Positions 5,107 to 37,833 of a stretch of DNA of 64,000 bases are shown one piece after another. Location of the stretch: the NCBI RefSeq assembly GCF_026210795.1, contig NC_089438.1, forward strand, positions 3,059,501 to 3,123,500, in the 5' to 3' direction. The notes under the pieces were generated by a model. That model ran no database searches. It saw nothing but the letters and a program-made list of their open reading frames with translations, and was not told the origin of the DNA. A program made the translations under genes and the position numbers. Numbering within the stretch: the first letter of the stretch is position 1; the number at the start of each line of letters is the position of its first letter. This DNA comes from Rhizophagus irregularis (Eukaryota; Glomeromycota; Glomeromycetes; Glomerales; Glomeraceae).

Positions 5107-5455
5107 TTTAATTTTTTACTGTAATTTGATAATCAATCACATAGCCACAATTATTAATTTAATATTTAATAGTTTTTATTGTGAAAAATAACATAGCCAC
5201 AATTATTAGTGAATTATTTATTGTGTAAAATTTTATTAATATACACATAAAAGGAATGTTATGTAATTTGAATATAATAAAATATTAATTTTTTTTATTT
5301 ATTGTTTGAATCGTTTTTTTACCACTCAAATAAATAAAGTGAGATGACAAAATTCTCTAGTAAAAATTTTACTTTCTTCAATATTCGTAGTATTTACAAG
5401 TAAAACTCAATTTTTTTCTAATAAATACTTTATCCTCTTCTTTATTTTTTTCAAA

Positions 5456-6880
5456 ATGGATATCTGTGAAGCTGTTTCTTCTATTCGAAATAAAAATAAA
5501 ATCAATGTTTGTGGCTATCTCATGGTTAAAGACAAAAAAAGAAACAACTCATATTACTGGTATTGTGAAAAACGGGATCAACTACGATGCAATGAACGAG
5601 CTACAACTATGTTTACCAAAGATCAACATCACCTTGTAAAGTTTACAGATCACAACCATGCTGCAGATGCAAGCCGAGTTATAGTTGTAAAAAGTCTCAA
5701 TTTATTAAAAGAACGGGCCCAACAAACAAATGACCAGCCTGTACAAGTTATTCAAAGTGTTTTGGCTGGTAGCTCACAGGAAATAGGTTCTCATTTGCCA
5801 TCTCGTGATGCACTTCGTCAAGCTGTCAAACGAGTTAGACGTGCTAATTTACCAGCAGAGCCACAATCTTTTGCAAATCTTATTATTCCTGATAATTTGC
5901 AAAAAACTTTAAGTGGTTCTGAATTTTTGATTAGGGATTTAAACATAGGTGATGAAAAAGTGCTAATTTTTACAACATTTAATAATGTCAACTATCTGTC
6001 TCAATCATCCTTTTGGATAATGGACGGTACTTTCAAGACTGTCCCAACAATTTTTAAACAACTCTATACAATTCATGGAAGTGTTGGAGGTAGTGAAAAC
6101 TCCCAAATTATGCCTCTTGTATTTTCACTAATGTCAAGTAAATCAGAGGAGTGCTATAGAGCATTGTTTCAAAATTTAATCAACTTTGGTGATGAACATA
6201 ACATTGATCTACAACCACAGTATGTATTAACAGACTTTGAAAAAGCTTCAATCAATGCAGTTCATATAGAATTACATGGTGTCCAAAATAAAGGCTGCCA
6301 TTTTCATTTGTCCCAAAGTGTATATTGTAAAGTGCAAGCATTTGGCCTTGCTTCTCAATATGCAAGTGACGAAAATATTAGTTTATTTGTTAGACATATC
6401 CCAGCACTTGCATTTTTGCCTTGTGATAATATTCCAGCTGCATTTGATGAATTAAGGAGTAACATGCCACCAGACATGCAACCAGAAGTCAATGAACTTT
6501 TGGATTGGTTTGAGATTTATTATGTCCATGGAAAGGTGATTCGTAGATTAAGAAATGGAAATGTGGTTCGTTCCGAGCCATTATTTCCACCATCTTTATG
6601 GTCAGTCACTGAAAATATAGAATATACATTTCCAAGAACACAGAATTCAGTAGAGGCATGGCATAGGAGATGGGAGACATTGGTGGGTCGTGCACATGTG
6701 GGATTATTTAAAATCATAAAGGAGTTGCAAAGTGAGCAGCATCAAATTGAGATTAAGGTTGAGTCAATTCTTCGAGGAAATCCACGACCTAAGCAAAAAA
6801 AACATGATAGGGAACATGAAAACAGAATCCAGGTGGTTTATAATGATCAGGAAAATAGACCATTATTAGACTTTCTTTGA
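5456..6880 (+). CDS. MULE transposase with FLYWCH-type zinc finger
   Basis: This is a single 474-residue frame without introns. Residues about 15-62 form a FLYWCH-like finger: NVCGYLMVKDK, then YYWYCEKR, then C...H-N-H around FTDHNHAAD. It probably binds the terminal subrepeats. The central region is a MULE-type DDE nuclease: first Asp in FWIMDGTFK, second Asp in YVLTDFEKA followed by GCHFHLSQ, and a later acidic residue in SVEAWHRRWE. The C-terminus is Lys/Arg-rich. The ATG at 5456 directly follows a T-rich leader and precedes the finger, so the start is well supported. The product should cut and join the element's own ends in the nucleus. No frameshift or stop is seen. The assignment rests on motif order and spacing. 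Confidence 0.88.
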   Translation: MDICEAVSSIRNKNKINVCGYLMVKDKKRNNSYYWYCEKRDQLRCNERATTMFTKDQHHLVKFTDHNHAADASRVIVVKSLNLLKERAQQTNDQPVQVIQSVLAGSSQEIGSHLPSRDALRQAVKRVRRANLPAEPQSFANLIIPDNLQKTLSGSEFLIRDLNIGDEKVLIFTTFNNVNYLSQSSFWIMDGTFKTVPTIFKQLYTIHGSVGGSENSQIMPLVFSLMSSKSEECYRALFQNLINFGDEHNIDLQPQYVLTDFEKASINAVHIELHGVQNKGCHFHLSQSVYCKVQAFGLASQYASDENISLFVRHIPALAFLPCDNIPAAFDELRSNMPPDMQPEVNELLDWFEIYYVHGKVIRRLRNGNVVRSEPLFPPSLWSVTENIEYTFPRTQNSVEAWHRRWETLVGRAHVGLFKIIKELQSEQHQIEIKVESILRGNPRPKQKKHDREHENRIQVVYNDQENRPLLDFL

Positions 6881-7338: not shown

Positions 7339-10025
7339 TGCGTCCCGTTGACAATAATGCCAAGATGATATGAAATGGATCAATATAGTTCATGCAGAAA
7401 TTATTAGATAATACTGTAACTGGATATTACATGAATGGCCCGAAAAACTGATAATATTGAGGCACTACATGCCAATAACAAATAGTAACTGAATTATTTA
7501 TCACCTTAATACCCCAAAAATTTATTAAACGTCATTTGAATAATTTCCAAAAATTCAGATCTCGTCTCATGAAAACAACTTCCAGATTACAAATTTTAAG
7601 TTATCATTGAGCTCATGATAAAGTTTTATAAGCGAACTTTGATTGACTAAAATATTATGAACGTGTTTAAATCAATTTTGCATATCCCGTAATCCTATTG
7701 CTTACTAATATGTTTATTATCCATAGTGTTTGATAAAAAGAGTTGTAAGAAATGGAAAAAAAAATGAAAAAAAAAATTAATGGGAAATGAGAAAGAAATA
7801 TAAGAATGAAAAATCGTGAGAAATGAGAGTAGAAATTGTGAAATATGAAAAAAATGTTTGTAAGGAAATGAAAAAAATTAAAAAATATTTATAGAAATTG
7901 AGTTTCACATGAAATTATAAGGTTAGATTCTGGTATCACACGGTATAGTGTTCATATTTACTTTTTTCAAAAAATCGTTTTTCTAAGTAAAAAATCATAT
8001 AAAATATATTTATTCAAGCAAAAAAAAAATTATTTCTATTATATCACAGCACTTGCCCGATCCAAACCTAAAGAATGAAAAAACGAAAAAAAAATTGGTC
8101 AAATTTTTACATTCTAAATTATTTTAATAACTAGGGTAAATCAGGAATCAAGTTGGGACACTCCTTAATTATTCTTTTTATTATTATCATTAATCATTTA
8201 AAAAATTTTTTTTTATTTATATTGGTTTTAAACAATTTTATAAAAAGAAAGTTTGTATGAGCGTTATTAAATTAAAAATGAAATTAATATTTCGTGAATA
8301 AAATCCATTTTGACATGTAATTTTTTATAAAAAATTCGTTAGAATAATTTAAATGGGAAAACTTTTGTGTGATCACTACTTGTATCCCTTTGCATACTGA
8401 ATAAAAAATTCCAAATTTAAAAAAATTAACCCAAATTATCGTGATCCATATATTAAATATAATTGTCGATAATTTTGTTATTTTTAAAAAATCAAAAATA
8501 AGCTATAATTAACGTTAAGCTATAATTAAACTAAAGTCAATGGGTCACACGATAATATCGTTACGTGGCCAAATCTTTACCAATCATCTGCTATAATTGG
8601 TTAATAATTGTGATATTAATCGTTGCAAAGCACAATATATAACTTATAAATATAATTAGAGATTATATTACTCTTGAGATCATTGGTTTAATTCATTTAA
8701 TTCAGATAATCTTCTTTTAAAAGAGAAAAAAATGGTAGATTAAAAAAAAAGAACAAACTCCCATAAAGAAAATCTGTTAATTTAATAATTTACTGAGAAA
8801 TATTGTATTTTTCCTTTTTATAAAAATTAAAAGTAAACAGTAATTAACCATTTTTACCATTTTATTACGTAATATGTTCATCCTTTTGTTTTTTTTTCAT
8901 CATCACTTTTTTTCAATATATACTAACATACCATCTACGTAGGAGCTGATTGCGGATCCAATGCATAAAGCTTGACATATTTTAAACTTAAAAGTAAGCT
9001 TAAGCTTAAGCTTAATATGTAATGTTATAAAAATGCTGGCATCAGCAAACTAACCATATATTGGATTTCGATTAAAGTTAGACTCATTGTACAGATTTTC
9101 AGCATTCTTTTCTTCAAGCTAAAGAGTTGAATTTGAACATTATTCCTACAATAAAGAACCAACCAACATGAGTATTTATAACTCAACAGTACTTCAAATT
9201 TTGTCAAGTTTTCTCAGACAAAATTCAAACAATTCCTATTTGGAAATTGTCCATCATAGGTCAATAAAGTGTTTGGTTGCATCCATTGGTTGCATAACGA
9301 TAAGGAACTAGTGAATAAAAAATAAAACCAAATTTTTTCAAGAATTATTTAACAGGGTTTTACTAGACTATTAGTAATTATAATAATTTTTTATGACCTT
9401 CAGATTCTGTACCTTTTAAAGTTTTCAGTAAAATTAGGAACAAAAGTTATTTCCATGTGATGATTTCTTTCATGATTAAATATGACATTTATTACAGCAT
9501 TCTTTAGATTATGGATAATTAACTTATAACTTTTTATAAACATATAATATACTATATAAATAACCTAAAAAAATGCTTCATCCATGTACCTAATTTATGG
9601 CTTTGTAACGAACTCAATAATTGCGTGCAAAAATGATCGGCTAAAAATTTCAGCCCACATTACAATGATCAGGCATTACATAATTATGCATAAGTATCTT
9701 TATTATGGCATGAAGTTTAAATAATGGATAATTAGCTTATAACTTTATAGACTTATAATATATGGCATGAATAATATTAAAAAATTAATGAAATTATTTT
9801 TTTTTGGTTCAAAAAGTTTCACTTAATATTCGTGTTATTTTAGAAAAATTCACGTGCATTTAAATTGAAAATGATCGGCAAATAATTGGTTGAATTTTCA
9901 TAAAAATTTGTCTTACAATGATCAGCAATACATAATTATGCATAAATAAGTGAAATTTTTTTTTCTTACTACTACAAATTTTTTTTCTTTTTTATACGTA
10001 TGAATTTTAGTTGAAAAAACTCTCA
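7339..10025. other. gene-poor spacer with a local duplication
   Basis: No supported gene lies here. Frames on either strand at 9025-9360 are short and unrecognised. A short AAGCTT tandem run sits at about 8995-9015. Two imperfect direct copies of about 220 bp (roughly 9508-9700 and 9721-9950) share ATGGATAATTA, AAAATGATCGGC, ACAATGATCAG and CATAATTATGCATAA in the same order, just upstream of the kinase locus. The last 60 bases before the kinase ATG are T-rich, as expected of a fungal promoter or leader. Confidence 0.45.
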
Positions 10026-13000
10026 ATGGGCAAAAGTGTTAAAAAGCTGATAAACAAGTCACGTGATCATTGTGACTATGAATGTAACGCAAAATGGTTT
10101 AAACAAAATTTTAAAAATTGGACTAGCAGGAATCATCATATTGATAAATTTATTCAAAATACTCAGCTATTAGAACATACTTCTTTTGTAGAAAATGCAT
10201 TAGAGTGGATACCTTATGATAGACTTGATGATATTAAATATGTTGCGGATGATGAGTTTGGCAAAGTGTATAGTGCAAAATGGATTGATGGATGCATAAA
10301 TAAATGGGATGATGAAAATCAAAATTGGAAAAGAGAAAATCAAAATATGTTTGTAATTTTGAAATTATTAAATAATCCAGCAAAAATTACATCAGAATTT
10401 ATAAATAAGGTATAATAAATTTGTCAAGTTTCATTTTTTCGTGAATTATAATATAAATTAATCACATTGTGTCATTTGATGGAAAAAATTACCAGTTATT
10501 TTAAATTGCAAATAGTTGAAAATTTTATTTTTTACTAATATTTCTAACTTAAATATATTGTAGATTGCTGTATCTCATAAAGTTTATGGAATAACTCAAG
10601 ATTCAAAAACAAAGAATTTTATGGTGGTTATGAATGATATATGTAAAAAATGTAATAGAGTGTGTAATTCATTATATTTTCAACGAAATTTTAAAAATTG
10701 GACTAGTGGTAATAATGATATTGATAAATTTATTCAAGATACTCAGCTATCAGTACATCCTTATTTTGAGATAAAAAATGCATTAGAATGGATACCTTAT
10801 GATAGACTTTATAATATTAAATTTACAGATGTTGATAAGTTTGGCAAAGTGTACAGAGCAAATTGGACTGATGGATGTATAAATGTTAAGTTTTTCAGTA
10901 GTTGGGATAATAAAAATCAAAATTGGAAAAGAAAAGAAAATATCTTTGTAATTCTGAAAATTTTAAATAATCCAGCAAGTATTACACTAGAATTTATAAA
11001 TAAGGTATAATAAATTTACATTTTTTCGTGAATTATAATATAAATTAATCATATATTGTGTCATTTGATGAAAAAAATTACCAGTTGTTTTAAATAACAA
11101 ATAGTTGAAAATTTTATTCTTGCTAATATTTCTAACTTTAATATATTGTAGATTGCAGTATCTTATAAAGTTTATGGAATAACTCAAGATCCAAAAACTG
11201 GAAACTTTATGGTTGTTTTGAAGGATATGTGTGAAAAATGTAAAACAATGTGTAATTCAATGTATTTTCAACGAAATTTCGATAATTGGACCAGTAGTAA
11301 TAAAGATATTGATAAATTTATTCAATATACTCAGCTATCAGTACATACTTATTTTGAGATAAAAAATGCATTAGAATGGATACCTTATGATAGACTTTAT
11401 AATATTAAATTTACAGATGTTGATAAGTTTGGCAAAGTGTACAGAGCAAATTGGACTGATGGATGTATAAATGTTAAGTTTTTCAGTAGTTGGGATAATA
11501 AAAATCAAAATTGGAAGAGAAAAGAAAATATGTTTGTAATTCTGAAAATTTTAAATAATCCAGCAAGTATTACACTAGAATTTATAAATAAGGTATAATA
11601 GATTTACATTTTTTCGTGAATTATAATATAAATTAATCATATATTGTGTCATTTGATGAAAAAAATTACCAGTTGTTTTAAATAACAAATAGTTGAAAAC
11701 TTTATTCTTGCTAATATTTCTAACTTTAATATATTGTAGATTGCAGTATCTTATAAAGTTTATGGAATAACTCAAGATCCAAAAACTGGAAACTTTATGG
11801 TTGTTTTGAAAGATATGTGTGAAAAATGTAAAACAATGTGTAATTCAATGTATTTTCAACGAAATTTCGATAATTGGACCAGTAGTAATAAAGATATTGA
11901 TAAATTTATTCAATATACTCAGCTATTAGAACATACTTCTTTTGTGGAAAATGCATTAGAGTGGTTACCTCATGATAGACTTGATGATATTAAATATGTT
12001 GCGGATGATGAGTTTGGCAAAGTGTATAGTGCAAAATGGATTGATGGATGCATAAATAAATGGGATGATGAAAATCAAAATTGGAAAAGAGAAAATCAAA
12101 ATATGTTTGTAATTCTGAAATTATTAAATAATCCAGCAAAAATTACACTAGAATTTATAAATAAGGTATAATAAATTTGTCAAGTTTCATTTTTTCGTGA
12201 ATTATAATATAAATTAATCACATTATATTGTGTCATTTGATGAAAAAAAAATTACCAGTTGTTTTTAAATAACAAATGGTTGAAAAGTTTATTTTTACTA
12301 ATATTTCTAACTTTAATATATTGTAGATTGCTGTATCTCATAAAGTTTATGGAATAACTCAAGATTCAGAAACAAAGAATTTTATGGTGGTTTTGAATGA
12401 TATATGTAAAAAATGCAATGAAGTGTGTAATTCAATATATTTTCAACGAAATTTTAAAAATTGGACTAGTGGTAATAATGATATTGATAAATTTATTCAA
12501 GATACTCAGCTATCAGTACATACTTATTTTGAGATAAAAAATGCATTAGAATGGATACCTTATGATAGACTTTATAATATTAAATTTACAGATGTTGATA
12601 AGTTAGGCAAAGTGTACAGAGCAAATTGGACTGATGGATGTATAAATGTTAAGTTTTTCAGTAGTTGGGATAATAAAAATCAAAATTGGAAAAGAAAAGA
12701 TCAAAATATGTTTGTAATTCTGAAAATTTTAAATAATCCAGCAAGTATTACACTAGAATTTATAAATAAGGTATAATAAATTTATTTAAGTTTCATTTTT
12801 TTTGTTAACTGCCATTCTGTGAAAAAAAAAAAAAAATTCCAGTTATTTTAAATAACAAATAGTTGAAAATTTTATTTTTACTAATATTTCTAACTTTAAT
12901 ATATTGTAGATTGCTTTATCTCATAAAGTTTATGGAATAACTCAAGATTCAGAAACAAAGAATTTTATGGTGGTTTTGAATGATATATGTAAAAAATGCA

Positions 13001-15997
13001 ATGAAGTGTGTAATTCAATATATTTTCAACGAAATTTTAAAAATTGGACTAGTGGTAATAATGATATTGATAAATTTATTCAAAATTCTCAACTATCAAC
13101 TCATTATGATATAAAGAGAGCATTAGAATGGATACCTTATGATAGACTTTATGATATTAAATATATTACAGATGATGATAAATTTGGTAAAGTGTACAGA
13201 GCAAATTGGACTGATGGGTGTATAAATGTTGATATTCTGAGCAGTAGTTGGGATAATAAAAATCAAAATTGGAAAAGAGATCAAAATATGTTTGTAATTC
13301 TGAAAATTTTAAATAATCCAGCAAGTATTACACTAGAATTTATAAATAAGGTATAATAAATTTATCATAAGTTTCATTTTTTTTTGTTATTTATAATATG
13401 CTAATTATTAAACTATGCCATTTTGTGAAAAAAAAAAAATCTCATTTTAAATAACAAATAGTTGAAATTTTTATTTTACTAATATTCCTAACTTTAATAT
13501 ATTGTAGATTGCGGTACCTTATAAAGTTTATGGAATAACTCAAGATTCAGAAACAAAGAATTTTATGGTGGTTATGAATGATAAATGTAAAAAATGTGAT
13601 AGAGTGTGTAATTCAATATATTTTCGACGAAATTTTAAAAATTGGACTAGTGGTAATAATGACATTGATAAATTTATTCAAAATTCTCAACTATCAGCTC
13701 ATTATGATATAAAGAGAGCATTAGAATGGATACCTTATGATAGACTTTATGATATTAAATATATTACAGATGATAAATTTGGTAAAGTGTACAGAGCAAA
13801 TTGGACTGATGGATGTATAAATGTTGACAGTAGTTGGGATAATAAAAATCAAAATTGGAAAAGAGATCAAAATATGTTTGTAATTCTGAAAATTTTAAAT
13901 AATCCAGCAAGTATTACACTACTAGAATTTATAAATGAGGTATAATAAATTTATCATAAGTTTCATTTTTTTTTGTTATTTATAATATACTAATTATTAA
14001 ACTATGCCATTTTGTGAAAAAAAAAAATTCTCATTTTAAATAACAAATAGTTGAAATTTTTATTTTTACTAATATTTCTAACTTTAATATATTGTAGATT
14101 GCAGTACCTTATAAAGTTTGTGGAATAACTCAAGATTCAGAAACAAAGAATTTTATGGTGGTTATAAATGATAAATGTAAAAAGTGTAATAGAGTGTGTA
14201 ATTCAATATATTTTCAACGAAATTTTAAAAATTGGACTAGTGGTAATAATGATATTGATAAATTTATTCAAATTTCTCAACTATCAGCTCATGATGATAT
14301 AAAGAGAGCATTAGAATGGATACCTTATGATAGACTTTATGATGTAAAATATATTGCAAAAGGTGGGTTTGGAAAAATATATAGAGCAAAGTGGATTGAT
14401 GGTTATATAGTAGGTAAATGGGATAACCATGATCAAAATTGGAAAAGGAAGGATCAAAACATGGTCGTAGCTTTGAAAAGTTTAAATAATTCAAAAAATG
14501 TTACATTTGAATTTATGAATGAGGTAAATTAATCAATTATTCAGTTACCCAATATAAAATTATTTATTTATTGGTATTAATACTTATTTATAAATATACA
14601 GATTACATTACATTACAAAGTGAATTCGCACAAATGTATTATTAAACTTTATGGAATAACTCAAGCTCCAAAAGAAAAAAATTACATCATGGTTTTAGAT
14701 TATGCAGAGCATGGGAGTTTACGAAATTATTTAGATATAAAATATAATTATTTAAATTGGAATAATAAGATCAGTTATTTACATAAAATCGCACATGGAC
14801 TTAGAGATATACATGAAACAGAATTAATTCATCGAGATTTGCATATTGGTAATATATTAAGGCTTAAAAATCATACTTGTATAACTGATATGGGATTATG
14901 TAAACCTGCAGACTATAATGTACCAGAGAATGCAAAAAACAAATTATATGGTATTTTACCTTATATTGCGCCTGAAATTTTATGTGGACAAAATTATACC
15001 AAAGCTGCAGATATTTATAGTTTTGGTATAATTATGTATGAAGTAATTTCTGGATTACCTCCATATTATGATATAGGCCATGATATAAATTTAGCAGTGA
15101 AAATTTGTAAAGGACTTAGACCAAGGTTTAATATTAATGTACCCCAATTGATTGTGCATCTAATCAAAAAATGCTTGGATGCAAATCCATTAAATCGACC
15201 AAAAGCTGAAGAAATTGAAAAAACCTTAAGCAATTGGTTTAGGAAATCATATGATCTTAGTTATGCAGAGATAAATAATCAAATAAAAGAAGCAGAAATA
15301 ATTAATAAAAAATCACTGATTAATTGTACTACTACTAGTCTAGGAATATCATATAAAACACATTCAGAAGCAATTTATACCAGTAGATTACTTAATTTTA
15401 GTAATCTTCCTGAGCCAAAAAATTCTGATGATTATTATGAAGAAAATGATAATATAATTAGCATGAAATTTTCAGGTACTTATTAGTATTTTAAAATTAA
15501 TATGAAACTTTTTTTACTAATAAGGTTTTTATTATTAAATAGAATCCTTACAAATTGATATTTCTCAATTGAAAAATAACAATTCTTTTGAACTAAAAAA
15601 TTCTGATGATAGTAGTCACTATGAAAAGAATGATAATATTAAAATGGAATCTTCAGGTATATTTTTTAAAAAAAAAATTAATAAACTTAATTGTCAAAAT
15701 ATTAATAAATTTTTAATTCATTAAATAGAATTCTTACAAATTGATACTTTACTATTAAAAATTGATAATAATAATTTTCCTGAACAAGATAATTCTGATG
15801 TTTCTTACGAAAAAAATGATAATATAATTAGTATGGATTCTTCAGGTATTGATTAATAAAAAATATCCAGATCATTATTTAAAAATAAAATCACTAATTC
15901 TTTCCATTAAATAGAATCACTACAAATTGATATTTCCCAATTGAATACTAATAAAGATGGTGAATATTCCTTGGATACTATAGATAAAAGAAAATAA
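10026..15997 (+). CDS. TKL-type kinase with eight tandem N-lobe modules
   Basis: The model has 12 exons: 10026-10409, 10564-11004, 11152-11592, 11740-12165, 12327-12770, 12910-13350, 13508-13939, 14098-14523, 14602-15475, 15543-15656, 15729-15845, 15915-15997. They total 4623 nt, or 1540 residues plus stop. Exons 1-8 each encode a Cys motif (CKKCN..CNS), WTSGN..IDKFIQ, LEWIPYDRL, a P-loop region and a beta-3 Lys (ILK). Exons 2-8 also begin with a hinge-like VYGITQD. Only module 8 keeps a glycine-rich loop (KGGFGKIY). Exon 9 carries the rest of the kinase: hinge, HRDLHIGN, DMG in place of DFG, APE and a C-lobe. Exons 10-12 are acidic repeats. All joins in exons 1-9 are phase 0, later ones phase 1. 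The ATG at 10026 is the first in frame. It could instead be expressed as shorter forms by exon skipping. Confidence 0.7.
10564..14523 (+). repeat. tandem array of seven exon+intron kinase modules (about 590 bp)
   Basis: Units start at 10564, 11152, 11740, 12327, 12910, 13508 and 14098. Each holds a 426-444 nt exon, always a multiple of three; all but the last are followed by a 139-161 nt intron with donor GTATAAT, the shared branch region TTTCTAACTTTAATATATTG and acceptor TAG. The duplication breakpoint lies inside coding sequence: the hinge strand (NFMVV) runs straight into the Cys motif, and the frame is kept at all seven junctions. If an intron is retained, the donor itself gives a stop (GTA TAA) at once. 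Modules 2 and 3 are nearly identical, introns included. Confidence 0.85.
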
Positions 15998-26584: not shown

Positions 26585-29500
26585 TCATTGATTTTCAATT
26601 ATACATTCAAAACATTCAGACTTTTCTTGAACTAAGATTTCAGACTTTTCCTGAACTATGATTTCGGATTTTTCTTGAGCTAAAATTTCAGTAAATTTGC
26701 GAGTTGTATAATATGCTTGTGGATGAGATTGCATAATAGAAGTATTTGCTTGTTCTTGTGCTAAAGTTTTGTTTGCTTCTACAAATTCAAACATATCATC
26801 TTTTAATTGTTTATCAATATTAGGTACAATAAAGTTATATTCTCCATCCCTGTTTATTTCATAATATTCATTAATACATCCAATCCATTCAGATATAATA
26901 TCTTCAAGCATTCTTATGGTTGGTCTATTGGAGGGATTTGAATCCCAACATTTTTTCATTAAATCTATATAACATTTTGGAGTATTTTTTATAATTTCAG
27001 GACGTTTTCCTCTACAAATATCCAAGCTAAGGCGATGATCATGTGCTTCATGATAAAATGGAGGAGTACCAGATGTAAATTCCCACATTATCATTGAAAG
27101 ACTATAAATATCACTTGCTGGGGTATAGGGTTTGTTTCTTAATATTTCAGGAGCCATATAAGGTAAAACTCCATAAATTTCATCAACCTTATTACCAGAA
27201 TCACTTATAGGTTTACATAGTCCTAAATCAATAATAAATAACTCATTGTGATTATCTGACATTAAGACATTACCATCATGAAAATCGCCATGAGTTAAAT
27301 TTGATTCATGAATTACTTTAAGTCCTAATATAATTGTTTTCAATAATTGTAACTTATCTTGCCACTTAAATTTAATTATATCAGATAAACATTTTCTCAA
27401 ACTTCCTTTTTTCGCATAACTCATTACAATTATATAATTTAAATTATCTGGATCTTGAGTAATTCCAAAGAATTGAATAAATTTTGAAAATGATTTTTTT
27501 TGACAATCATAATGATATTTCCACTATATAGATGATAAAAAATTTATTAAATTTTTTTGCAAAAGAAAATAAAATTTGCTATAAAAATAAATACCATACC
27601 TCATCCAGAAATTTACTATTTAAACTTGATGAATTATTAAGTATTTTAAGAATAACCTCATAATCTATTTGTCTGTTCCATTGTTGTTTTTTAAAATTCC
27701 AACTATAAATAGGTCCATCTAACCAGATAGCTTTATGAATTTCACCAAATCCTCCTTTATCATAATAATCAATACTTGACAATTTATTATAAGGTATCCA
27801 TTCTAAAATTTCATAACTATTTTTAGCATTTAGTTGTGCTTCTTGAATAAATTTATCAATAAATTCATTTTTACTAGTCCACTTTGAAAAATCTTGTTGA
27901 AATCGTCTAGTATTACATTGTTGGCACCACTGATAATCAGTATATGGTTGCTTACATTCAATACAAGATTCAATTTCATTTTTAGGATTTCCTTTATCAT
28001 TTTCTGCTACTTTTTGATACCAATAAAAGGCTTTTTCTAAATTCTTCCTTGTCCCTTCTCCATTATTATAACATTTTACTAAACTAAGCATTGCTGTTTC
28101 AACACCATTTTCTGCTGCTTTATGATACCAATGAAAGGCTTTTTCTAAATTCTTTTCTGTTCCTTCTCCATTTTTATAACATATGGCTAAATTAAACATT
28201 GCTGTTTCAACACCATTTTCTGCTGCTTTTTGATACCAATGAAAGGCTTTTTCTAAATTCTTTTCTGTTCCTTCTCCATTTTTATAACATATGGCTAAAT
28301 TAAACATTGCTGTTTCAACACCATTTTCTGCTGCTTTTTGATACCAATGAAAGGCTTTTTCTAAATTCTTTTCTGTTCCTTCTCCATTTTTATAACATAT
28401 GGCTAAATTAAACATTACTGTTTCATCACCATTTTCTGCTGCTTTTTGATACCAATGAAAGGCTTTTTCTAAATTCTTTTCTGTTCCTTCTCCATTCTCA
28501 TAGCGTATAGCTAAACTATTCATTGCTTTAATATGATCTTTTTCTGCTGCTTTTTGATACCAATGAAAGGCTTTTTCTAAATTCTTTTCTGTTCCTTCTC
28601 CATTATAATACGTATTGGCTAAACTAAACATTGCATCTTCATCACCATTTTCTGCTGCTTTTTGATACCAATGAAAGGCTTTTTCTAAATTCTTTTCTGT
28701 TCCTTCTTTGTCTTCATAACATATGGCTAAATTAAACATTGCATTAGTATGACCATTTTCTGCTGCTTTTTGATACCAATGAAAGGCTTTTTCTAAATTC
28801 TTTTCTATTCCTTCTCCATTTTCATAACATATGGCTAAACTATTCATTGCATTAATATAATCTTTTTCTGCTGCTTTTTGATACCAATGAAAGGCTTTTT
28901 CTAAATTCTTTTCTGTTCCTTCTCCATTATAATACGTATTGGCTAAACTAAACATTGCATCTTCATCACCATTTTCTGCTGCTTTTTGATACCAATGAAA
29001 GGCTTTTTCTAAATTCTTTTCTGTTCCTTCTTTGTCTTCATAACATATGGCTAAATTAAACATTGCATTAGTATGACCATTTTCTGCTGCTTTTTGATAC
29101 CAATGAAAGGCTTTTTCTAAATTTTTTTCTGTTTCTTCTCCATTTTCATAACATATGGCTAAACTAAACATTGCATCTTCATCACCATTTTCTGCTACTT
29201 TTTGATACCAATGAAAGGCTTTTTCTAAATTCTTTTCTGTTCCTTCTCCATTTCCATAACATATGGCTAAATTATACATTGCACCAGTATAACCATTTTC
29301 TGCTGCTTTTTGATACCAATGAAAGGCTTTTTCAAAATTCTTTTCTGTTCCTTCTCCATTATAATACCCATTGGCTAAATTAAACATTGCTGTTTCATCA
29401 CCATTTTCTGCTGCTTTTTGATAGCAATGAAAGGCTTTTTCTAAATTCTTTTCTGTTCCTTCTCCATTTTCATAACATATGGCTAAATTATACATTGCAC

Positions 29501-30077
29501 CAGTATAACCATTTTCTACTGCTTTTTGATACCAATGAAAGGCTTTTTCTAAATTCTTTTCTGTTCCTTCTCCATTCTCATAGCGTATAGCTAAACTATT
29601 CATTGCTTTAATATGATCTTTTTCTGCTGCTTTTTGATACCAATGAAAGGCTTTTTCTAAATTCTTTTCCGTTCCTTCTCCATTCTCATAGCGTATAGCT
29701 AAACTATTCATTGCTTTAATATGATCTTTTTCTGCTGCTTTTTGATACCAATGAAAGGCTTTATCTAAATTCTTTTCCGTTCCTTCTCCATTTTCATAAC
29801 ATATGGCTAAATTATACATTGCACCAGTATAACCATTTTCTGCTGCTTTTTGATACCAATGAAAGGCTTTTTCTAAATCCTTTTCTGTTCTTTCTCCATC
29901 TCTATATCTATTGGCTAAATTAAACATAGCTACTTTATCACCATTTTCTGCTGATCTTTTTAAAGAATTAATACATTCTTCGCACCCCAATTCTTCAGTA
30001 AATGGTTTACAACAATTTTTGGTATTTATTGTATCAGTATCTTTATCTGAGATATTTAAATTAAGTTTAGTTTCCAT
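26585..30077 (-). CDS. Sel1-repeat (x18) TKL-type kinase
   Basis: There are two exons, 30077-27600 (826 codons) and 27523-26585 (312 codons plus stop), joined in phase 0 across a 76-bp intron, giving 1138 residues. After about 43 residues come 18 Sel1-like repeats of exactly 36 residues (consensus ENGEGTEKNLEKAFHWYQKA), expected to form a superhelical protein-binding scaffold. Next come a Cys motif (CIECKQ..WCQQC), WTSKNEFIDKFIQ, LEWIPYNKL and a P-loop GGFGEIHKA with VILK. Exon 2 holds the hinge FFGITQDP, a catalytic loop HGDFHDGN (HRD changed to HGD, Asp kept), DLG in place of DFG, and APE. The tail repeats an eight-residue unit ending QEKS three times. The catalytic Asp and Lys are present, so activity is possible. 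The ATG at 30077 is the first in a long frame. Confidence 0.88.
28005..29950 (-). repeat. 108-bp coding minisatellite (18 Sel1 units)
   Basis: There are eighteen units of 108 bp with very high nucleotide identity; the segment AATGAAAGGCTTTTTCTAAA recurs nearly unchanged. Units 9-11 and 12-14 repeat as a 324-bp higher-order block (NGHTN, NGDED, KD-type), and units 16 and 17 are almost identical. The pattern indicates recent unequal exchange, with no unit length change that would break the frame. Confidence 0.9.
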
Positions 30078-31912
30078 TTGGTTATTTTAGAAATTTATAT
30101 TATTGAAAAAAAAAATTTTTTTTATTTAATATGCCATGAATGAGTTACTAAAATGGAATATTTAACCAAAAGTAGAAGTTACAATAAAATGAATTTTTTT
30201 CGGGTCATATTTTTTCCGATGCACTGATCTGCATCAATAAATAAGCAGTCACGTTTTCCATAATATACCAAATACTTGAAAAGTTTTCTATTGAAACAGA
30301 TTGGTTCGATGTGTCAAATTTCACTGTTTAGTATAGTAAAACATACGCAAAATTTCAAACAATTTATGTATTTTAACATTCTATTATTTAAATAAACTTA
30401 ATTAAAGATTAAAAGCTCTATTTAAGTAGAATCTAAATAAAAAAAAGGTTAATGCAAAATAAACAAGCTTAATTTTTGAAAAATTTTAAGATTATAAGAA
30501 ACATTTTTTTTTATACAGAATGTTCTTTAATGAAATTGGTAGACAAATAAATGGGTATGAGTTGAATATTTCCACAAATAAAACTTATTATATAGGTGCA
30601 CAAAAATCGTTATACTAATATAATTGTAATAATTACATTTAATAGTAATTTTTTTATATTATAAAAAAATTTGACGATACATAGTATAATAAATGATTAT
30701 TATAAATTAAGAGTCCTGTTATACTCGTTATACTCATAAATATACTTTACAAATACACAAATAATATTAGAAAAAGAATTTTTTTCAAAAAAATTTTCTG
30801 GGTATCATATGCTTAATAATTAATAAAAGTTAAATATATAAATTAAATTTATTTTTGATAAAAAATAGATGTCAAAAGTTATAATAAATGAATCCTAAAT
30901 TTAGATTGGCCCATATGATATTACGTAATTCTAATTTTTGTATATTAATTAAATTTGAAAAAATTTCAAAAATTCTTCTAATGGTAAATAAGATTATAGG
31001 CATTTCTTATCCAATAACGCAAACAACCATAATGCAGATCAATGAAATATAGCCCGAAAAAATAAAAATCAACGAAAATTTCTAATTTTAGTTAAACATG
31101 CTTTATCCTCAAAGAAAAACGGCGATAAAAATTCGCCATAACAATGTAAAAATGTAATGCAGATCATTGTATTGGAAATAATACGGCCCCAAAAAAATAA
31201 ATAATCTTCTATTTTTAGTTAAAACCTTCCATTTTAGTAACGACAAATTGAATATCGTGGTTATTTTAAAAATAATGGGAATTATACTTATCATCAATTA
31301 AAAACTCCTTCGAATTTTTAACATGAACAACACGCACTAGTATTACATTTAAAAATGATCCAACAACCCAATTCAAACCAATCTCTTTCTTTTATTAATA
31401 AATTATTTAATGATTATATAAAAGCTAGCAAACATTATGAGCATTGATTATTTCTTCTCTTATACCATAAAATATTAAAGTTAAATATGGGACTACGATA
31501 ACAACAAGAAGAATCGCTTGACTTCCGACTATTAAAGAAAATAAGAAAGTTACATGCTATTTCCGGTTGAAACAACGAGAGTTAGACAAAGAATATCAGT
31601 TGAAAAACATCATTTATTATTTTGTTATATTTAAAGTGAATCACTATTTAAATTTACCTAACTATTTACCTAAATAAAATAATATATAGAATTATCAAAT
31701 AATGGTACGCTTCAAGATTACTCTAAGAATAATTTTAGTAATCTTACTTGGAATAATAAATTAGATATCGCTTATCAAAATATTATGATTGTAAATTTCA
31801 AAATTATTACATAAATTAAGAATTCATTAATAAAAAATCATATAAATCATGAAAAAAAAAACTAACAAAAAAATATAATAATAATTATTATTAATTGCAA
31901 ATTGTAAATAAA
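30078..31912. other. intergenic region
   Basis: No gene is supported. A degenerate direct duplication is visible at about 31027-31105 and 31156-31240 (AATGCAGATCA..., then TTCTATTTTTAGTTAAA-like words). The first 120 bases upstream of the Sel1-kinase start contain a TTTTTTTTAT tract and probably its promoter. Confidence 0.4.
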
Positions 31913-34900
31913 TCATATAATTTTACGCTTTTTCAATATTTCTAAGAAATTTGACATATAAATTTCCGCGAATGATGAAAAATAATACTGTTAAAAAAAA
32001 ATTTTCAAAAAATAGTTTTCGGATTATTAGTATTTATTAAATTATTAAAGAAAAAAAGTAAAAAAAGAAAAAAAACTTCACTTACTTCATGTTGAGAACT
32101 ATGATTTTGAATAAAATTATGCGCTAATTCATGACAAAATGTCATGAACCAATAAATCATTGCATTAATTGTAGGTTTGGTTTTACATTCGTTATCATGT
32201 AATCCAATGTAAAATTTTAAATTGAAAAATAATGATTTATCCCGATTAAATGCAATCGAATTTGATTGATTGTCATAAAATACATGAAGAGCTTGTGGCG
32301 TGATTTCAAATGCACTCGCAAGATCTTTTAATATATTTATAAAACGATTTAACGGATCAAAATTCGATTGAGATAGAATTTCCGATTGATTAAACCCTTT
32401 AGGATCATAAAGCTCAATTCCTTGTCTAGTTCCAACACAGAATAATAAGTGACCTAAAAGCGTAAAATATATAAGATAATTATGAAGTATTTGATATTAT
32501 AATTAAATGATATCGTATTATATTTACCAGGTATTACATCACAATATCCAGATTGACTCTCTTTAAGAATTGCCATACTAGCTTGACTATTTACAACATT
32601 TCCAAAATTAGAATGACATGCTTTTACAGCAATTTGTAGAGAATTTCGTAAATTTTGAGTTGTTTCAGGAGTTATAATAATTGGAACCTTTACAGATTCT
32701 AATTGTTGATCACATTTCTTAGCAACATTTTCTGATTTAGATTGTAAGGCACGATCAACTGGGTATCCTCTACGTTCCAAACTTGATAAAGATATAGTTA
32801 AAATCATGTTAGAATAAGATATTTCCATCCATTTGTGTGACATGTAAATTTTTTTACATATCGCTTCTGAAATATCAAGCTTATCCGGATCAGGTGTTAC
32901 ATAAAGAATCCATGTATACAAATTCATCTGCGCATTTTGAAGAATGCAAGCAGTAGTAGATTCTTTTATAGTTCTAGTAATATTTTCTAACTTATACGTT
33001 GTTTCTATTCGATCAATTTCTCTAACTTCTAATTTTTTGAGCCACTCTACGTCTTTAGCAATCTTATTACTAGGATAGTCATAAAAGAATAAATTTGCTC
33101 TTTCCCTGATTGTATTTTGTATTTCTTGAGAATTATTGTATGTTATTTTCATTACGCCTCTGGGAATTGTAGTTTCTAATACGGATTCACGTAACGATCT
33201 AGAACCAAGTTTCTAAGTTATAAATAATTTGTCATCAGTTTAAACATTATAGACAATTTGTTATGTTAATACTGAATCTCAATAAAATTAATAATAAACG
33301 CTATACCTCATACATATTTTCTAGTAAAGTATCTTCTGGAGCTACCGATGGGTTGAAAATTTTTTGATATGTTTCACAATCATTTATAAAAATTTCTCCC
33401 GCCGATTTCAGCTCATGATGATTCGTCTTTCTTCTACCATTGAACTCTACCACTTTGGCCAATAAAATAGGTTCCCTTTTCATCTCAGCAATTAAACTTG
33501 CTTTTTTGCTAGCTATAGTATCGAAATCAATGGCAATTCTTCTTAATATGTTTACATAAGTTTCTACACTATAGTCGGTTGATTTCCATAGTTCATATGA
33601 TGATTTCACTAACAATTCTGCAAATTCTATTGAAGATGGTTCATTTTTAACACCACAACTAAACAAAAATCTATTTGCTTTCTCTCCAAAATCAATATAA
33701 GTGAGAAATTCATACAAGCTAAAAAAAAAGTTATACGTAAAAAGTTAGATTTCTTTCTTTTTAAAAAAAAAAATTTAATGAGGTATATATTATACCTTTT
33801 TTTATGTGTTTTAAAGAAACAACCGCTCGGATTAGTATGGATTATTGCATGAGGTTGAAAGCGGTCTCTAACTGGAATAAATTTGAGATCAGCAAGGATC
33901 TTCAAATCAGAATGGTTAAAACGTCCCTGTTGTGTTGATAAATATTCGAAAATTTCCTTTGCCTTTTTATCATTTTGTGGTGGATAATCAACTAATCTTT
34001 TTATAAGTTCTTCGTTACTAGGATTTTGACAAACACCGAATTGTTCTGCATAAAACAATAAATCTTGACGTATGACATTGAAATTCATTTTCATGCATTC
34101 AAGGTTAGTGAAGCATTCTGAAGGCTTTGCGTAAATACCTTCATTTGAACAAGGCAAAAATGCAACATTGATTTCAGTTGATTTATAATTTGCAGAATAT
34201 TTTTCTTTAAAATTATCAATAAAATATTTAAGAGCCTTGCTACGAATTATGGGATCGGTTGGTGGTGCTACCAGCTCTAAAATTTTTTGAAGTGCAGGAT
34301 ATTCTTGTAGGCCAAACTCAATTAAAAGTTTCCCTAAGAATTTAAAAATACATTATTATTAACTATTGATTAAATAATTAATTAATAAAATAAAACAAAA
34401 TGATAATGAAATAATACCTTCTGGAGTGTTGCGAATCCATTTTCCTTTCCAATCAATTATAGGTAAACCAAACTCTCGATGCAATGGTAAAGGTATATAT
34501 AAATTTCTGGCATTGTAACGTTGAATTGCTGGTGCCGTATTTATTTTTTTGGATCCTTTCTTGTCAAGCGTTTTCATTTCTTTGGATTCATTCTTGTTAT
34601 GTGCTTTCATTTTTTTTTGCTCGTACTTATCAGGATGTGAATATTCCAAATTTTCTTTAGGCCAGATGGGTTTGTTCTTTAATATATTTATGTCATTTTC
34701 TTTGAGATCATTCATTCTTGAGGCTAGATATTTTATAAGTTGCACGTGATCCCAATTTCCTTGATTGACAAGACGATCAAAAATGAGTTGTAATTCAACA
34801 ACCTATAAATAAGGGATTAGCAATTAACAACTTAATATTCCAAAAAAAAAAATGAAACATGATTTTACCTTTCGGACGCCAAGGAGTTCCATTATATTCT

Positions 34901-37833
34901 GAACATTTGAAGGTTTTTGAAATTGAATCGTTGGCAAGTCGGGAAAAAGATTAACATTTTGAAAATAAGCTTCATTGGGAACCTTCATTCCAAACTTAGT
35001 TGGAATGCATTTCTTTTGTGCAAATAGTTTACGAATTGTTTCCTTATCATTTTGCGAAGTGTTATTTAAACCTTTTGCTAAAATACAGTGAACTTTCTCA
35101 GCAAATGCAAGATCAACTTCCAAATCAGATTTATTTACTATAAATCTTGCCCAATTTACCAAAGGTAATTCCGACCAATTAAGCCATTTTTCAAGATCCT
35201 GATTTTTAAAATTTTTGGAAATAGTATGTGGTAATACTTCAACTGGAACGTCCATATTTGGTGGAACTATGCCTGGATTCAAAAAGTAACAAATTGTATC
35301 CAAAGAACGGGATTTACTACCAATATGTGTAAGTTGCATAAACTGTTTATGTTCTGATGGATCAATTTTATTACCCTTCGACCTACGGGAGATCCACCAT
35401 TTTAAAAGTTCGACTAATTCGACTTCAGAAAGTGTCCTACTTTTTAATTCAAATAAAACATCTTTAAGTGATAACTCTTCTATAAGTTTAAACGAATCTT
35501 TTGCTTTCATAAAAAATAAATTACATTTTTCAAACGTAATTGTTGAAACAACTGGAACAGTTTTTAAGAAACCCTTCATTTCAGGATTAGGAATGCGAAC
35601 ATTAGATATTGGAAGGACGCCATTCGTTGATAAAATTGACACCGGTTTTTTTGAACATTCAAAAAATTGGGATTCCGATATTTTACCAACTTTCTCATTT
35701 GGTGTGCTTCTCCTGAACATAAAATGTGTCAAAGCATGCGTTGCTCGTCTATCAATCGATTCATGAAAGCCTTCTTCATCAGTCTTAGTATCAGCCTCAG
35801 TATCAGCCTTAGTATCAGCCTTAGTATTAGTCTTAGTATTAGTCTTAGTATTAGTCTTAGTATTAGCCTTAGTATTAGTATTAGTATTAGTCTTAGTATC
35901 ACTAATCATTTTATTATAAACTCGCGCTATTTGTGCCATTTCATGTTCATATAAAATCCTGCACAATGTTCCTGCTAAACTTAGCATTTCACCGTTGTAT
36001 ATTACCAAAGTTTTTTCTGCCAAATCAATTGACTCTCGTTCCACCTAAATATTATAAATTTTTAAATATATTAGATTAATATTACGTACTTTTTTTTTAA
36101 ATTAGATACTTCAAATGTATACGTACGGTAGGAATTACACGAGCTGCCAAATGAGAACAACATCCGGTGGTTTGATGAGTTGAAAAGCCGATATATACCC
36201 TTCCTAATTCTGGATATGGAAGTAAATCTTTAAAGACTCGAGAAACATTTTTATTATAATTTTCGTGTTCTTCAAATCCAGTAAAAATCATTTGAATGGT
36301 TGTTTTACTTGGAGGTTTTTTTTTAGTAATTCTTTCCATTTCTGCAGAAAATTCATTACTAATTTTAACGTTCAAATTCCCACTAGCGATTTTAAGAGAT
36401 ACAGATGCTTTCTCTATTTGAAAATCAGTAATTTGTAACGAACGCCAATGTTTTGCACTCATATTTTTTGGAATAAGTATTCTCGTAGCATCTATTTGGA
36501 CATTTCTAACGTCCACCGAAGTAAGTTGAAAAATTTTTTGTGGGGAATTTTTATTAATTTCGGATGCGATATTCATCGCTTTTGGGTCTTGCATTTTCTT
36601 TGATAGTCCTATTACCAATGTATCATTAAAATACACAGATAATTCTCGTAGATTTCCGGTAAATCCCTATGATTTAATTAAATATAAATACATATTATAA
36701 AACATTAATAATCATAACGTTAAAATTAAGTTTACCAACGAATTTGCCAAGAACTGGCCGAATTTTTCGATATCTGGAAACTAAATTTATATAAAAAAAA
36801 AAATTATATTAGCATATTAAAAAGGTTTAACTAGATGTAACGATATCATAACTATTTTAATAAATACTTTACCTCTAAGGGTTCTCTCGTGTCCATTAAA
36901 AATGTCGTCCAAACTCTATCTTCATCACCGGTCGGACCTTGCTTTGTGAATAATTGATTTCCTTGCCAAAAGAAGGCCATTCCTTGTCCACCAGATGAAA
37001 CACTATCAAATGAAATATTAGTTTAATAATCGCGATTTATTAAAAAAAAAGAAGAACCGCCTTTCTAATAACTTACAATGGTTCTTCACATATTGAAAAT
37101 AATGAATAAAATCCTACACCAAAAGCACCAATCTATAAATATTATATAAAAGTTAGAAGGAATTCACTTAATATGACAAAGTTATAAATATCTAAATAAA
37201 AGTTTCACTTTTTGTTCATCTGGATTTCCTTCAGCAATTTTCTTTAATCGATTCCAATCTTCATCTCTAAAAGGAAATCCATTATTTTTGAATATAATTC
37301 GCGTAATTTTATCTCCAAATTTATTACTATTATTACTCTTTATCCTTTTATCTATGCTTTCTTTAATTGGGTTGAATATATTTCTTATAACATTATTCTT
37401 TATTTTTTTATCTTTTGAAGTATTAGTGGTATTTGTAGCGTTTGTGGCGTTGGAAGCATTCGTGGCATTTACAGTTTCAAATATAATTTGTATACTTGAT
37501 GATTTCGCATCATCTTAATTAATATATAATTAATTTTTTTTATTAATATAACATTGAAAATCAAAGCGTGAGAAATAATAAAAATCAAAATTCTTACCAG
37601 AATTTTGTATCAGTTCCCGGTATATCACAAACTCAGAAGAATATCTAAAATTGAAAAAGATTTCTTATTAATAAAGAAATTAATATATATAAAATATATG
37701 ATCGAAAAAAAATAATAAATAATATTTTTTTGTACCGAGCCAAAATCTTATCAATCAAAAGTCTTTGATTGACTTCAACACGTTCTTCACTTAAACTCGA
37801 AAGAACTTTACGTTTAAAAGCATCCAAGGACAT
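31913..37833 (-). CDS. GHKL ATPase, sacsin/DUF3684-like, with C-terminal HExxH
   Basis: Fourteen exons on the minus strand: 37833-37736, 37644-37598, 37513-37209, 37132-37077, 37002-36873, 36780-36736, 36666-36127, 36044-34869, 34802-34418, 34333-33796, 33718-33307, 33212-32528, 32453-32086, 31987-31913. All phases agree and total 4860 nt, or 1619 residues. The N-terminus is an Hsp90/GHKL nucleotide fold: ELIQNSDDAKS (N box, split by an intron), NNGFPF, then KIGAFGVGFYSLFSI and SSGGQGMAFF. The middle is the long fungal DUF3684-type region (family recalled, not searched). A variable Thr/Asn/Lys/Asp tract lies in exon 8. The end carries FCHELAHNFIQNHSSQHE, an HExxH motif with further His and Glu, then YYFSSFAEIYMSN. 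One donor is GTGAAA and weak. The likely role is ATP-driven chaperone or quality-control work; a protease role is only a possibility. Confidence 0.8.
35790..35905 (-). repeat. coding 12-bp microsatellite in the GHKL gene
   Basis: Plus-strand units GTATTAGTCTTA and GTATCAGCCTTA repeat about nine times. They encode a polar Asp/Asn-Thr-Lys tract between the conserved GIYNKM-like helix and the ESIDRRATHALTHFM segment. All changes are in whole codons, so length should vary between strains without loss of frame. Confidence 0.8.

What the first reader, a model, noticed from the sequence alone, without database searches (positions are those of the whole stretch)
10026..15475. Kinase N-lobe amplified eight-fold with frame kept at every coding junction
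The duplication breakpoint lies within exons (hinge strand fused to the Cys motif), yet all seven junctions and all introns are phase-compatible, and every module exon is a multiple of three. A 1540-residue protein with eight partial N-lobes and one catalytic lobe is predicted. Random tandem duplication would rarely stay open seven times, so selection or recent origin is implied.
Basis: partly seen in the sequence, partly recalled or inferred. Interest (0 to 1): 0.85.

Follow-up and report, generated by a model that had tools for sequence, protein, structure and literature searches.

The report
Kinase with eight tandem N-lobes
In what looks like the genome of a root-symbiotic fungus, half of a protein kinase (the N-lobe) has become a repeat unit that is strung together several times in front of one complete kinase, and the gene found here is one of dozens built the same way.

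Summary
Window 10026-15997 (+) reads as a 12-exon, 1540-residue gene: eight kinase N-lobes, one C-lobe, three repeated tail exons. It is not a one-off: four capped searches of the window's genome found 298 places for the module in 78 clusters on 18 contigs. In 20 fetched arrays plus the window, 4-15 N-lobes run into one C-lobe. Other close relatives show one N-lobe and the same splice site.

Selection on frame is real all the same: 262-384 nonsense changes expected without constraint, at most 11 of 132 internal modules not intact. It may protect only the downstream kinase.

Internal lobes form their own class: degenerate Gly loop, VAIK Ala in 0 of 121, Lys and Cys mostly kept, shortened alpha-C/beta-4 segment. 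My reading: non-catalytic pseudo-N-lobes used as a variable docking array on an active kinase. The anatomy is well supported on sequence; the function is inferred; neutral expansion is a serious rival.

The parts
10026..10409 (+). Exon 1: ATG, Cys motif (HCDYEC), WTSxN..IDKFIQ linker, beta-1 to alpha-C of N-lobe 1; loop ADDEFG, FVILK
   Evidence: in-frame TAG at 10008-10010 read directly
10564..11004 (+). Exon 2: beta-4/beta-5 of N-lobe 1 fused to Cys-linker-beta-1..alpha-C of N-lobe 2
11152..11592 (+). Exon 3: same module (N-lobes 2/3)
11740..12165 (+). Exon 4: same module (N-lobes 3/4); mosaic, 5' half 99.4% to exon 3 and 3' half 97.4% to exon 1
12327..12770 (+). Exon 5: same module (N-lobes 4/5)
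12910..13350 (+). Exon 6: same module (N-lobes 5/6)
13508..13939 (+). Exon 7: same module (N-lobes 6/7)
14098..14523 (+). Exon 8: terminal module; the only N-lobe here with intact Gly loop (AKGGFG) and VALK
14602..15475 (+). Exon 9: alpha-C end with full-length segment (ITLHYKVNSHKCIIKLYG), beta-4, beta-5, hinge and catalytic C-lobe (HRD, DMG, APE)
15543..15656 (+). Tail exon 10, phase 1-1, first copy of a tail repeat (SLQIDISQL...)
15729..15845 (+). Tail exon 11, phase 1-1, second copy
15915..15997 (+). Tail exon 12, third copy, ends at the stop

Best explanation
This is one member of a large family of kinase genes in which half of the kinase fold has become a repeat. The ancestral gene had two main exons split inside alpha-C: exon 1 (Cys motif, linker, beta-1 to alpha-C) and exon 2 (alpha-C end, beta-4, beta-5, C-lobe). 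A recombination fused the start of one exon 2, cut in the hinge, to an exon 1 in frame, making a symmetric phase 0-0 exon. That exon has since been gained, lost and mixed by unequal exchange and gene conversion. The product is a chain of N-lobes ending in one complete kinase. Only the last N-lobe keeps the whole set of ATP-site residues and can pair with the C-lobe to phosphorylate. The others have a conserved but non-catalytic sequence class, have no C-lobe of their own, and lack part of the alpha-C/beta-4 segment. I think they act as pseudo-N-lobe docking or sensing units whose number and sequence vary between paralogues, while the terminal kinase is the output. Shown on sequence: gene anatomy as an open reading model, family, junction, residue classes, mosaicism, copy-number differences among paralogues. 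Inferred: splicing as modelled, expression, the order of events, and that the array binds partners.
For: Anatomy. Family: 298 places, 78 clusters, 56 with two or more and 45 with three or more hits (from capped). 21 of 21 loci have modules followed by one C-lobe in the stretch fetched, with 4 to 15 N-lobes (three or four loci are cut at their start). Ancestral form: of 20 fetched C-lobes with no module hit nearby (of 51 such), 16 show a single N-lobe within the 1.9-2.0 kb fetched upstream and 4 show two or more, with a GT at the same alpha-C place. One fusion: 18 residues from the beta-4 Gly to the first Cys in 107 of 121 internal and 16 of 21 terminal modules; 8 residues before that Gly in 106 of 121 internal and 17 of 21 terminal modules against 17-21 in 38 of 41 C-lobe exons. 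Residue classes: first two Gly-loop Gly 21/21 terminal, 7 and 8 of 121 internal; VAIK Ala 21/21 against 0/121; VAIK Lys 21/21 and 113/121; the three Cys 120, 118 and 120 of 121 internal, against 17, 16 and 17 of 21 terminal. Tree: internal against terminal plus single needs 3 changes when first-exon rows are left out. pN/pS 0.84 internal against 0.36 terminal in beta-3/alpha-C and 0.74 against 0.32 around the Gly loop, but 0.61 against 0.64 in the Cys-linker. Frame kept. Copy number: the paralogues with C-lobes 96, 94, 94 and 92% identical have 4, 7, 4 and 8 N-lobes.
Against: No transcript, protein or second isolate. dN/dS of internal modules is 0.7 to 0.8 and 0.69 to 1.29 between close paralogues while the C-lobe is 0.15 to 0.42; the terminal N-lobes of the same pairs span 0.14 to 1.07, so the contrast with the terminal lobe is not clean there. 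Within arrays, exons are only slightly more alike than introns, in 15 of 20 loci, and less alike in 5. Sites with dN>dS number 9 of 141 at p<0.05, about what chance gives: diversifying selection is not shown. A stop upstream would remove the kinase, so frame selection alone does not prove that each lobe works. In 2 of 21 loci (L014, L019) the C-lobe match itself is broken into two frames, so those arrays may be dead. AlphaFold gave no usable model (mean pLDDT 38.3). With first-exon rows in, the internal label needs 11 changes on the N-lobe tree; the C-lobe tree needs 5 changes between array and single: one origin is not ruled out but not shown.
Confidence: 0.55

Rival explanations
1. Passenger expansion. 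Unequal exchange adds symmetric exons; they are tolerated because they keep frame and because the terminal N-lobe plus C-lobe does the work. The extra lobes have no role beyond not disturbing folding.
For: Internal dN/dS 0.73 in-array (median of 400 of 407 pairs) and 0.8 on the tree; up to 11 of 132 internal modules not intact; exon and intron identity nearly equal; constraint on the ATP half much weaker; copy number 4 to 8 among close paralogues.
Against: 33 of 141 sites with dN<dS at p<0.05, at core, Cys, WTSGN, IDKFIQ and VxLK positions; an internal-specific consensus (D/E in the Gly loop, I/N in VAIK) and Cys kept better than in terminal modules, shared by arrays on different contigs; Cys-linker as constrained as in terminal modules; arrays in dozens of loci.
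Confidence: 0.33
2. Cassette exons. Every module exon ends at the same alpha-C splice site as exon 8, so splicing any of exons 1-8 directly to exon 9 gives a complete single-N-lobe kinase or pseudokinase. The array is then a menu of N-lobes for one C-lobe rather than one long protein.
For: The window's module exons are 0-0 and share the alpha-C split with single-N-lobe genes.
Against: Internal N-lobes mostly lack the Gly loop, and all 121 lack the VAIK Ala, that all 21 terminal lobes keep, so they do not look selected to pair with the C-lobe; no splicing data.
Confidence: 0.08
3. Decayed or misassembled array: a pseudogene, or copies made by assembly error.
For: Up to 11 of 132 internal modules in the fetched loci are not intact and the C-lobe match is split into two frames in 2 of 21 loci; repeats are hard to assemble.
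Against: All window exons are open and the copies differ from each other (72 to 95% to exon 5); 262-384 nonsense changes expected without constraint; same architecture in 21 of 21 loci.
Confidence: 0.04

Closest known systems
Expanded tyrosine-kinase-like and Sel1 kinase families of Rhizophagus irregularis (PMC6123716 and PMC8647823, passages only)
   Same: Same kind of kinase (PF07714), very high copy number; the passages mention tandem arrays of duplicate genes and nearby MULE elements, and this window holds a Sel1 kinase and a MULE transposase
   Different: Those passages speak of duplicate genes; none that I saw mentions an N-lobe exon multiplied inside one gene
Plant tandem kinase-pseudokinases, WTK1/Yr15 (PMC6170490, passages only)
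   Same: Non-catalytic kinase-derived unit in one chain with a catalytic kinase; Gly loop among the least conserved residues of the pseudo unit; decoy role proposed there
   Different: TKPs join complete kinase and pseudokinase domains; here only N-lobes repeat, 4 to 15 of them, with one C-lobe
Brown algal LRR-ROCO genes with one repeat per exon (PMC11378527, part of the abstract and passages)
   Same: A repeat unit in its own same-phase exon, multiplied inside the gene, in front of a signalling domain
   Different: The repeat is half a kinase fold, not an LRR; alternative splicing untested and diversifying selection not shown here
JAK kinases, JH2-JH1 (PDB 7t6f, named there a tyrosine-protein kinase, is the best sequence match of exon 8 + 9; that it is a JAK is recalled)
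   Same: Pseudo unit ahead of an active kinase (recalled)
   Different: JH2 is a full two-lobe pseudokinase (recalled; the match has two stretches in one chain)

Membership tests
PK_Tyr_Ser-Thr protein kinase (PF07714), terminal unit | Profile match over the whole domain | tested here: met
   E 3.4e-46, residues 84-351 of exon 8 + exon 9, profile 5-258 of 258
PK_Tyr_Ser-Thr protein kinase (PF07714), terminal unit | Gly loop, VAIK Lys, alpha-C Glu, HRD, DxG, APE (motif list recalled) | tested here: met
   AKGGFG, VALK, EFMNE, HRDLHIGN, DMG, APE in the window; over 21 terminal modules GG 21, Lys 21, Glu 19
PK_Tyr_Ser-Thr protein kinase (PF07714), internal modules | Profile match | tested here: not met
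   No kinase-domain family at E<=1 for any of 7 module exons taken alone (the terminal exon is one of the 7) or at E<=10 for exons 5 and 6 joined. A single exon is a split N-lobe, so this alone says little.
PK_Tyr_Ser-Thr protein kinase (PF07714), internal modules | Own C-lobe with catalytic residues | tested here: not met
   One C-lobe per array in 21 of 21 loci, in two of them matched in two pieces
Plant tandem kinase-pseudokinase | Complete kinase and complete pseudokinase domain in tandem | tested here: not met
   Only N-lobes repeat
Exon-per-repeat receptor arrays | Each repeat in its own exon of one phase | tested here: met
   0-0 exons in the window; AG and GT at the homologous codon boundary of most module exons elsewhere (which looked only at in-frame offsets, so its L%3=0 column is by construction)
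Exon-per-repeat receptor arrays | Diversifying selection on repeat surfaces | tested here: inconclusive
   9 of 141 sites dN>dS at p<0.05, about the chance number
Exon-per-repeat receptor arrays | Alternative splicing of repeat exons | not testable with these tools
   No RNA data
Tandem array of separate duplicate genes | Each unit has its own C-lobe and stop | tested here: not met
   One C-lobe per array; no module exon of the window holds a stop

The most novel reading that the evidence does not exclude
Half of a protein kinase, the N-lobe, has become a tandem repeat unit like an LRR or TPR, giving a genome-wide repertoire of poly-N-lobe receptors with an active kinase as output. Because every module exon of the array ends at the same alpha-C splice site, splicing can also place any N-lobe of the array on the single C-lobe, so that one gene encodes both a docking chain and a menu of kinases and pseudokinases.
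Probability: 0.12. Interest if true: 0.9.

Novelty: new variant of a known kind. Interest (0 to 1): 0.7.

Why it matters
Kinases are normally thought of as two lobes that work only together. Here one lobe is copied 4 to 15 times in a chain, in dozens of loci of one genome, with its own conserved non-catalytic sequence class. If made as long proteins, these are a new kind of repeat-bearing signalling protein and a testable candidate for how these fungi sense partners. The window's module exons match no Pfam kinase model on their own, so automatic annotation may show only one kinase per gene and hide the arrays; I had no annotation of this genome to check that.

Tried and rejected
Site-level positive selection: tested, not shown. 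Exon-against-intron conservation as proof of selection: exons slightly more alike in 15 of 20 loci, less alike in 5, one locus without pairs (pairs under 80% exon or 75% intron identity were dropped). Gap lengths: among window exons 2-7 all internal gaps are multiples of three except one 2+1 pair, but over all arrays the crude pairwise alignments gave 646 of 1063 exon gaps and 343 of 1840 intron gaps as multiples of three; the pairs are not independent, so this is support only. AlphaFold on exon 5 with the six other module exons 2-8: mean pLDDT 38.3, not used. Relatives in viral contigs: 277 pattern matches, no relative. Bacterial promoter scan and an intron fold (z 0.57): uninformative. Papers: the listings show no title or abstract start that describes N-lobe arrays; several listings were cut (for example 20 of 232 and 10 of 53), the library lacks most subscription journals, and I saw passages of four papers only. 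Organism name: no call names it. Rhizophagus-like is my inference from 146.7 Mb in 32 contigs, base composition and gene types.

Rows dropped: 15 internal rows (11 modules, four of them split in two rows by a frameshift) were left out before residue, dN/dS and tree counts; some of the 11 only failed my splice-site rule. Two first rows were not usable. L017, L018, L019 and perhaps L016 start inside or at the edge of an array, so a few rows labelled F are not true first exons. A place counts as stopped only if every search that listed it showed a stop; hits within 120 bases were merged. The first 124 of 152 listed C-lobe rows were compared with the module list, and 20 of the 51 without a module hit were fetched.
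Full report
What is there. On the + strand, eight module exons (10026-14523) and one C-lobe exon (14602-15475) form an open reading model; with three short tail exons it ends at 15997 and gives exactly 1540 residues. All eight module exons are multiples of three and free of stops. Introns 1-7 are 139-161 nt with GT..AG, nearly the same splice sites and stops in every frame; intron 8 is 78 nt. The tail is itself a tandem repeat: exons 10 and 11 are phase 1-1 and exon 12 is a third copy (SLQIDISQL...).

Anatomy of the unit. Each of exons 2-8 starts at the end of alpha-C, runs through beta-4 and beta-5, and at the hinge passes into the N-terminal Cys motif, a WTSGN..IDKFIQ linker, and beta-1 to alpha-C of the next lobe (strand and helix names are assigned by eye from the kinase alignment, not from a structure). 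So a lobe is shared between two exons, and the protein is a chain of N-lobes ended by one C-lobe. The lobes are whole except for the alpha-C to beta-4 segment: 8 residues before the beta-4 Gly in 106 of 121 internal modules, 17-21 in 38 of 41 C-lobe exons. From general knowledge of kinases (recalled), this segment anchors the N-lobe to the C-lobe, so its shortening fits lobes that have no C-lobe.

Not a one-off. A search of the window's own genome with one module scored 150 of 4207 candidates; all 150 matched, most over nearly full length, 2 of them with a stop. Three more queries (candidates scored each) brought the union to 298 places in 78 clusters on 18 contigs; 6 of 298 carried a stop in every search that listed them. 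Thirty-seven of the 78 clusters lie in about 1 Mb of contig 2 (4.84-5.86 Mb; counted by hand). I fetched 20 of these arrays. In all 20 and in the window, modules are followed by one C-lobe, which in two loci (L014, L019) is matched in two frames and may be broken. N-lobe counts run from 4 to 15. Most module exons have AG and GT at the homologous codon boundaries.

Where it came from. A C-lobe search gave 124 rows that I compared with the module list: 73 had a module hit within 1.5 kb upstream. Of 20 fetched from the other 51, 16 show one N-lobe in the stretch fetched and 4 show two or more. Most of the single-lobe genes have a fuller Cys motif (CxxC..WCxxC), a few have a short one like the modules, and GT follows the same alpha-C place in all 20. 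The module exon is thus the start of exon 2 fused to exon 1 of such a gene. The distance from the beta-4 Gly to the first Cys is 18 in 107 of 121 internal and 16 of 21 terminal modules, which points to one fusion. On an N-lobe tree (180 rows, 118 columns, poorly resolved) internal modules against terminal plus single need 3 changes; with first-exon rows in, the internal label needs 11. On the C-lobe tree (25 array, 16 single) the labels need 5 changes; one origin is not ruled out.

Frame. Once a symmetric phase 0-0 exon exists, exchange between like copies keeps frame every time, so seven open junctions are one event, not seven. Selection on frame is still visible. The tree of 121 intact internal modules has 761 synonymous changes, which predicts 262 nonsense changes at equal rates, or 384 with the mutation spectrum seen in introns, that is two to three per module. 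At most 11 of 132 internal modules in the 21 loci are not intact. The caveat is important: a stop would also remove the downstream kinase, so this need not reflect a role of each lobe.

What is kept and what is lost. The first two Gly-loop Gly are present in 21 of 21 terminal modules and in 7 and 8 of 121 internal ones, where Asp (90) and Glu (75) prevail. VAIK Ala is 21 of 21 terminal and 0 of 121 internal (Ile 61, Asn 35). The VAIK Lys stays in 113 of 121, the alpha-C Glu in 91 of 121. The three Cys stay in 120, 118 and 120 of 121 internal modules but only 17, 16 and 17 of 21 terminal ones. In the window only exon 8 has the intact loop and VALK. pN/pS in the beta-3/alpha-C part is 0.84 internal against 0.36 terminal, but in the Cys-linker 0.61 against 0.64 (internal pairs within arrays, terminal pairs between arrays). 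The internal lobes thus lost constraint where ATP binds and kept it where the Cys-linker lies, which is why I place any function in docking rather than catalysis.

Results against a function. In-array dN/dS is 0.73 (median of 400 of 407 pairs), between arrays 0.62, terminal 0.43. Between the window and its four closest paralogues the C-lobe has dN/dS 0.19-0.36, the terminal N-lobe 0.46-0.70 and the internal modules 0.69-0.98; over all ten pairs of the group the ranges are 0.15-0.42, 0.14-1.07 and 0.69-1.29. Within arrays exons are only slightly more alike than introns (15 of 20 loci). Site tests gave 33 of 141 sites with dN<dS and 9 with dN>dS at p<0.05. So the modules are weakly constrained on the whole, with a conserved core, and diversification is not proved.

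Turnover. Exon 4 is a mosaic: its 5' half is 99.4% identical to exon 3, its 3' half 97.4% to exon 1. Arrays with C-lobes 96, 94, 94 and 92% identical to the window's have 4, 7, 4 and 8 N-lobes against 8 here. I infer that modules are exchanged, added and lost much faster than the catalytic lobe changes.

Verdict. The anatomy and the family are solid on sequence grounds. The most likely working model is a chain of pseudo-N-lobes that dock or sense, with one working kinase at the end; passenger expansion is the main rival. The paper listings I obtained show no description of such arrays, but they are partial. What the passages I saw do report for R. irregularis is a great number of tyrosine-kinase-like and Sel1 genes, tandem arrays of duplicate genes, and MULE elements near high-copy genes.

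Noticed in passing
5348-6880 (+): MULE transposase with FLYWCH zinc finger (Pfam), about 3 kb upstream of the array; PMC8647823 (passages) reports high-copy genes next to Mutator-like elements in R. irregularis.
   Followed up: partly
26585-30086 (-): Ordinary Sel1-repeat kinase: 18 Sel1 stretches (108-bp DNA unit, 18.1 copies, 88% matches), then one Cys/N-lobe, then a C-lobe exon. Its N-lobe has close matches in many places of the genome.
   Followed up: partly
15543-15997 (+): The C-terminal tail of the array gene is itself three tandem exons of one repeat, in phase 1.
   Followed up: partly
45570-47032 and 51882-53102 (-); 55570-57330 and 59940-61320 (+); 63420-63995 (-): Further kinase matches in the window; the first two look alike by eye and the two on the + strand are followed by Sel1-like repeats by eye.
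   Followed up: no
572-1346 and 1411-2823: Dense tandem repeats of about 131 bp and about 116-122 bp, not matched to anything.
   Followed up: no
32005-36666 (-): Several ORFs in a row on one strand; the 34824-36044 ORF matches DUF3684 at 8.4e-92. May be exons of one large gene.
   Followed up: no
G000 contig 2, 4.84-5.86 Mb: 37 of the 78 module clusters lie in this 1-Mb stretch near the end of a 6.14-Mb contig, a hot spot of poly-N-lobe genes.
   Followed up: partly
L004, L006, L008, L011, L015, L017, L019: Module rows that are not intact (frameshift, stop or no splice site by my rule) inside otherwise open arrays; being 0-0 exons they could be skipped in splicing without loss of frame.
   Followed up: no
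L042 and L053: Single-N-lobe kinases whose Cys motif is short, like that of the array modules, and whose C-lobes pair in the tree; possible relatives of the founder of the arrays.
   Followed up: no
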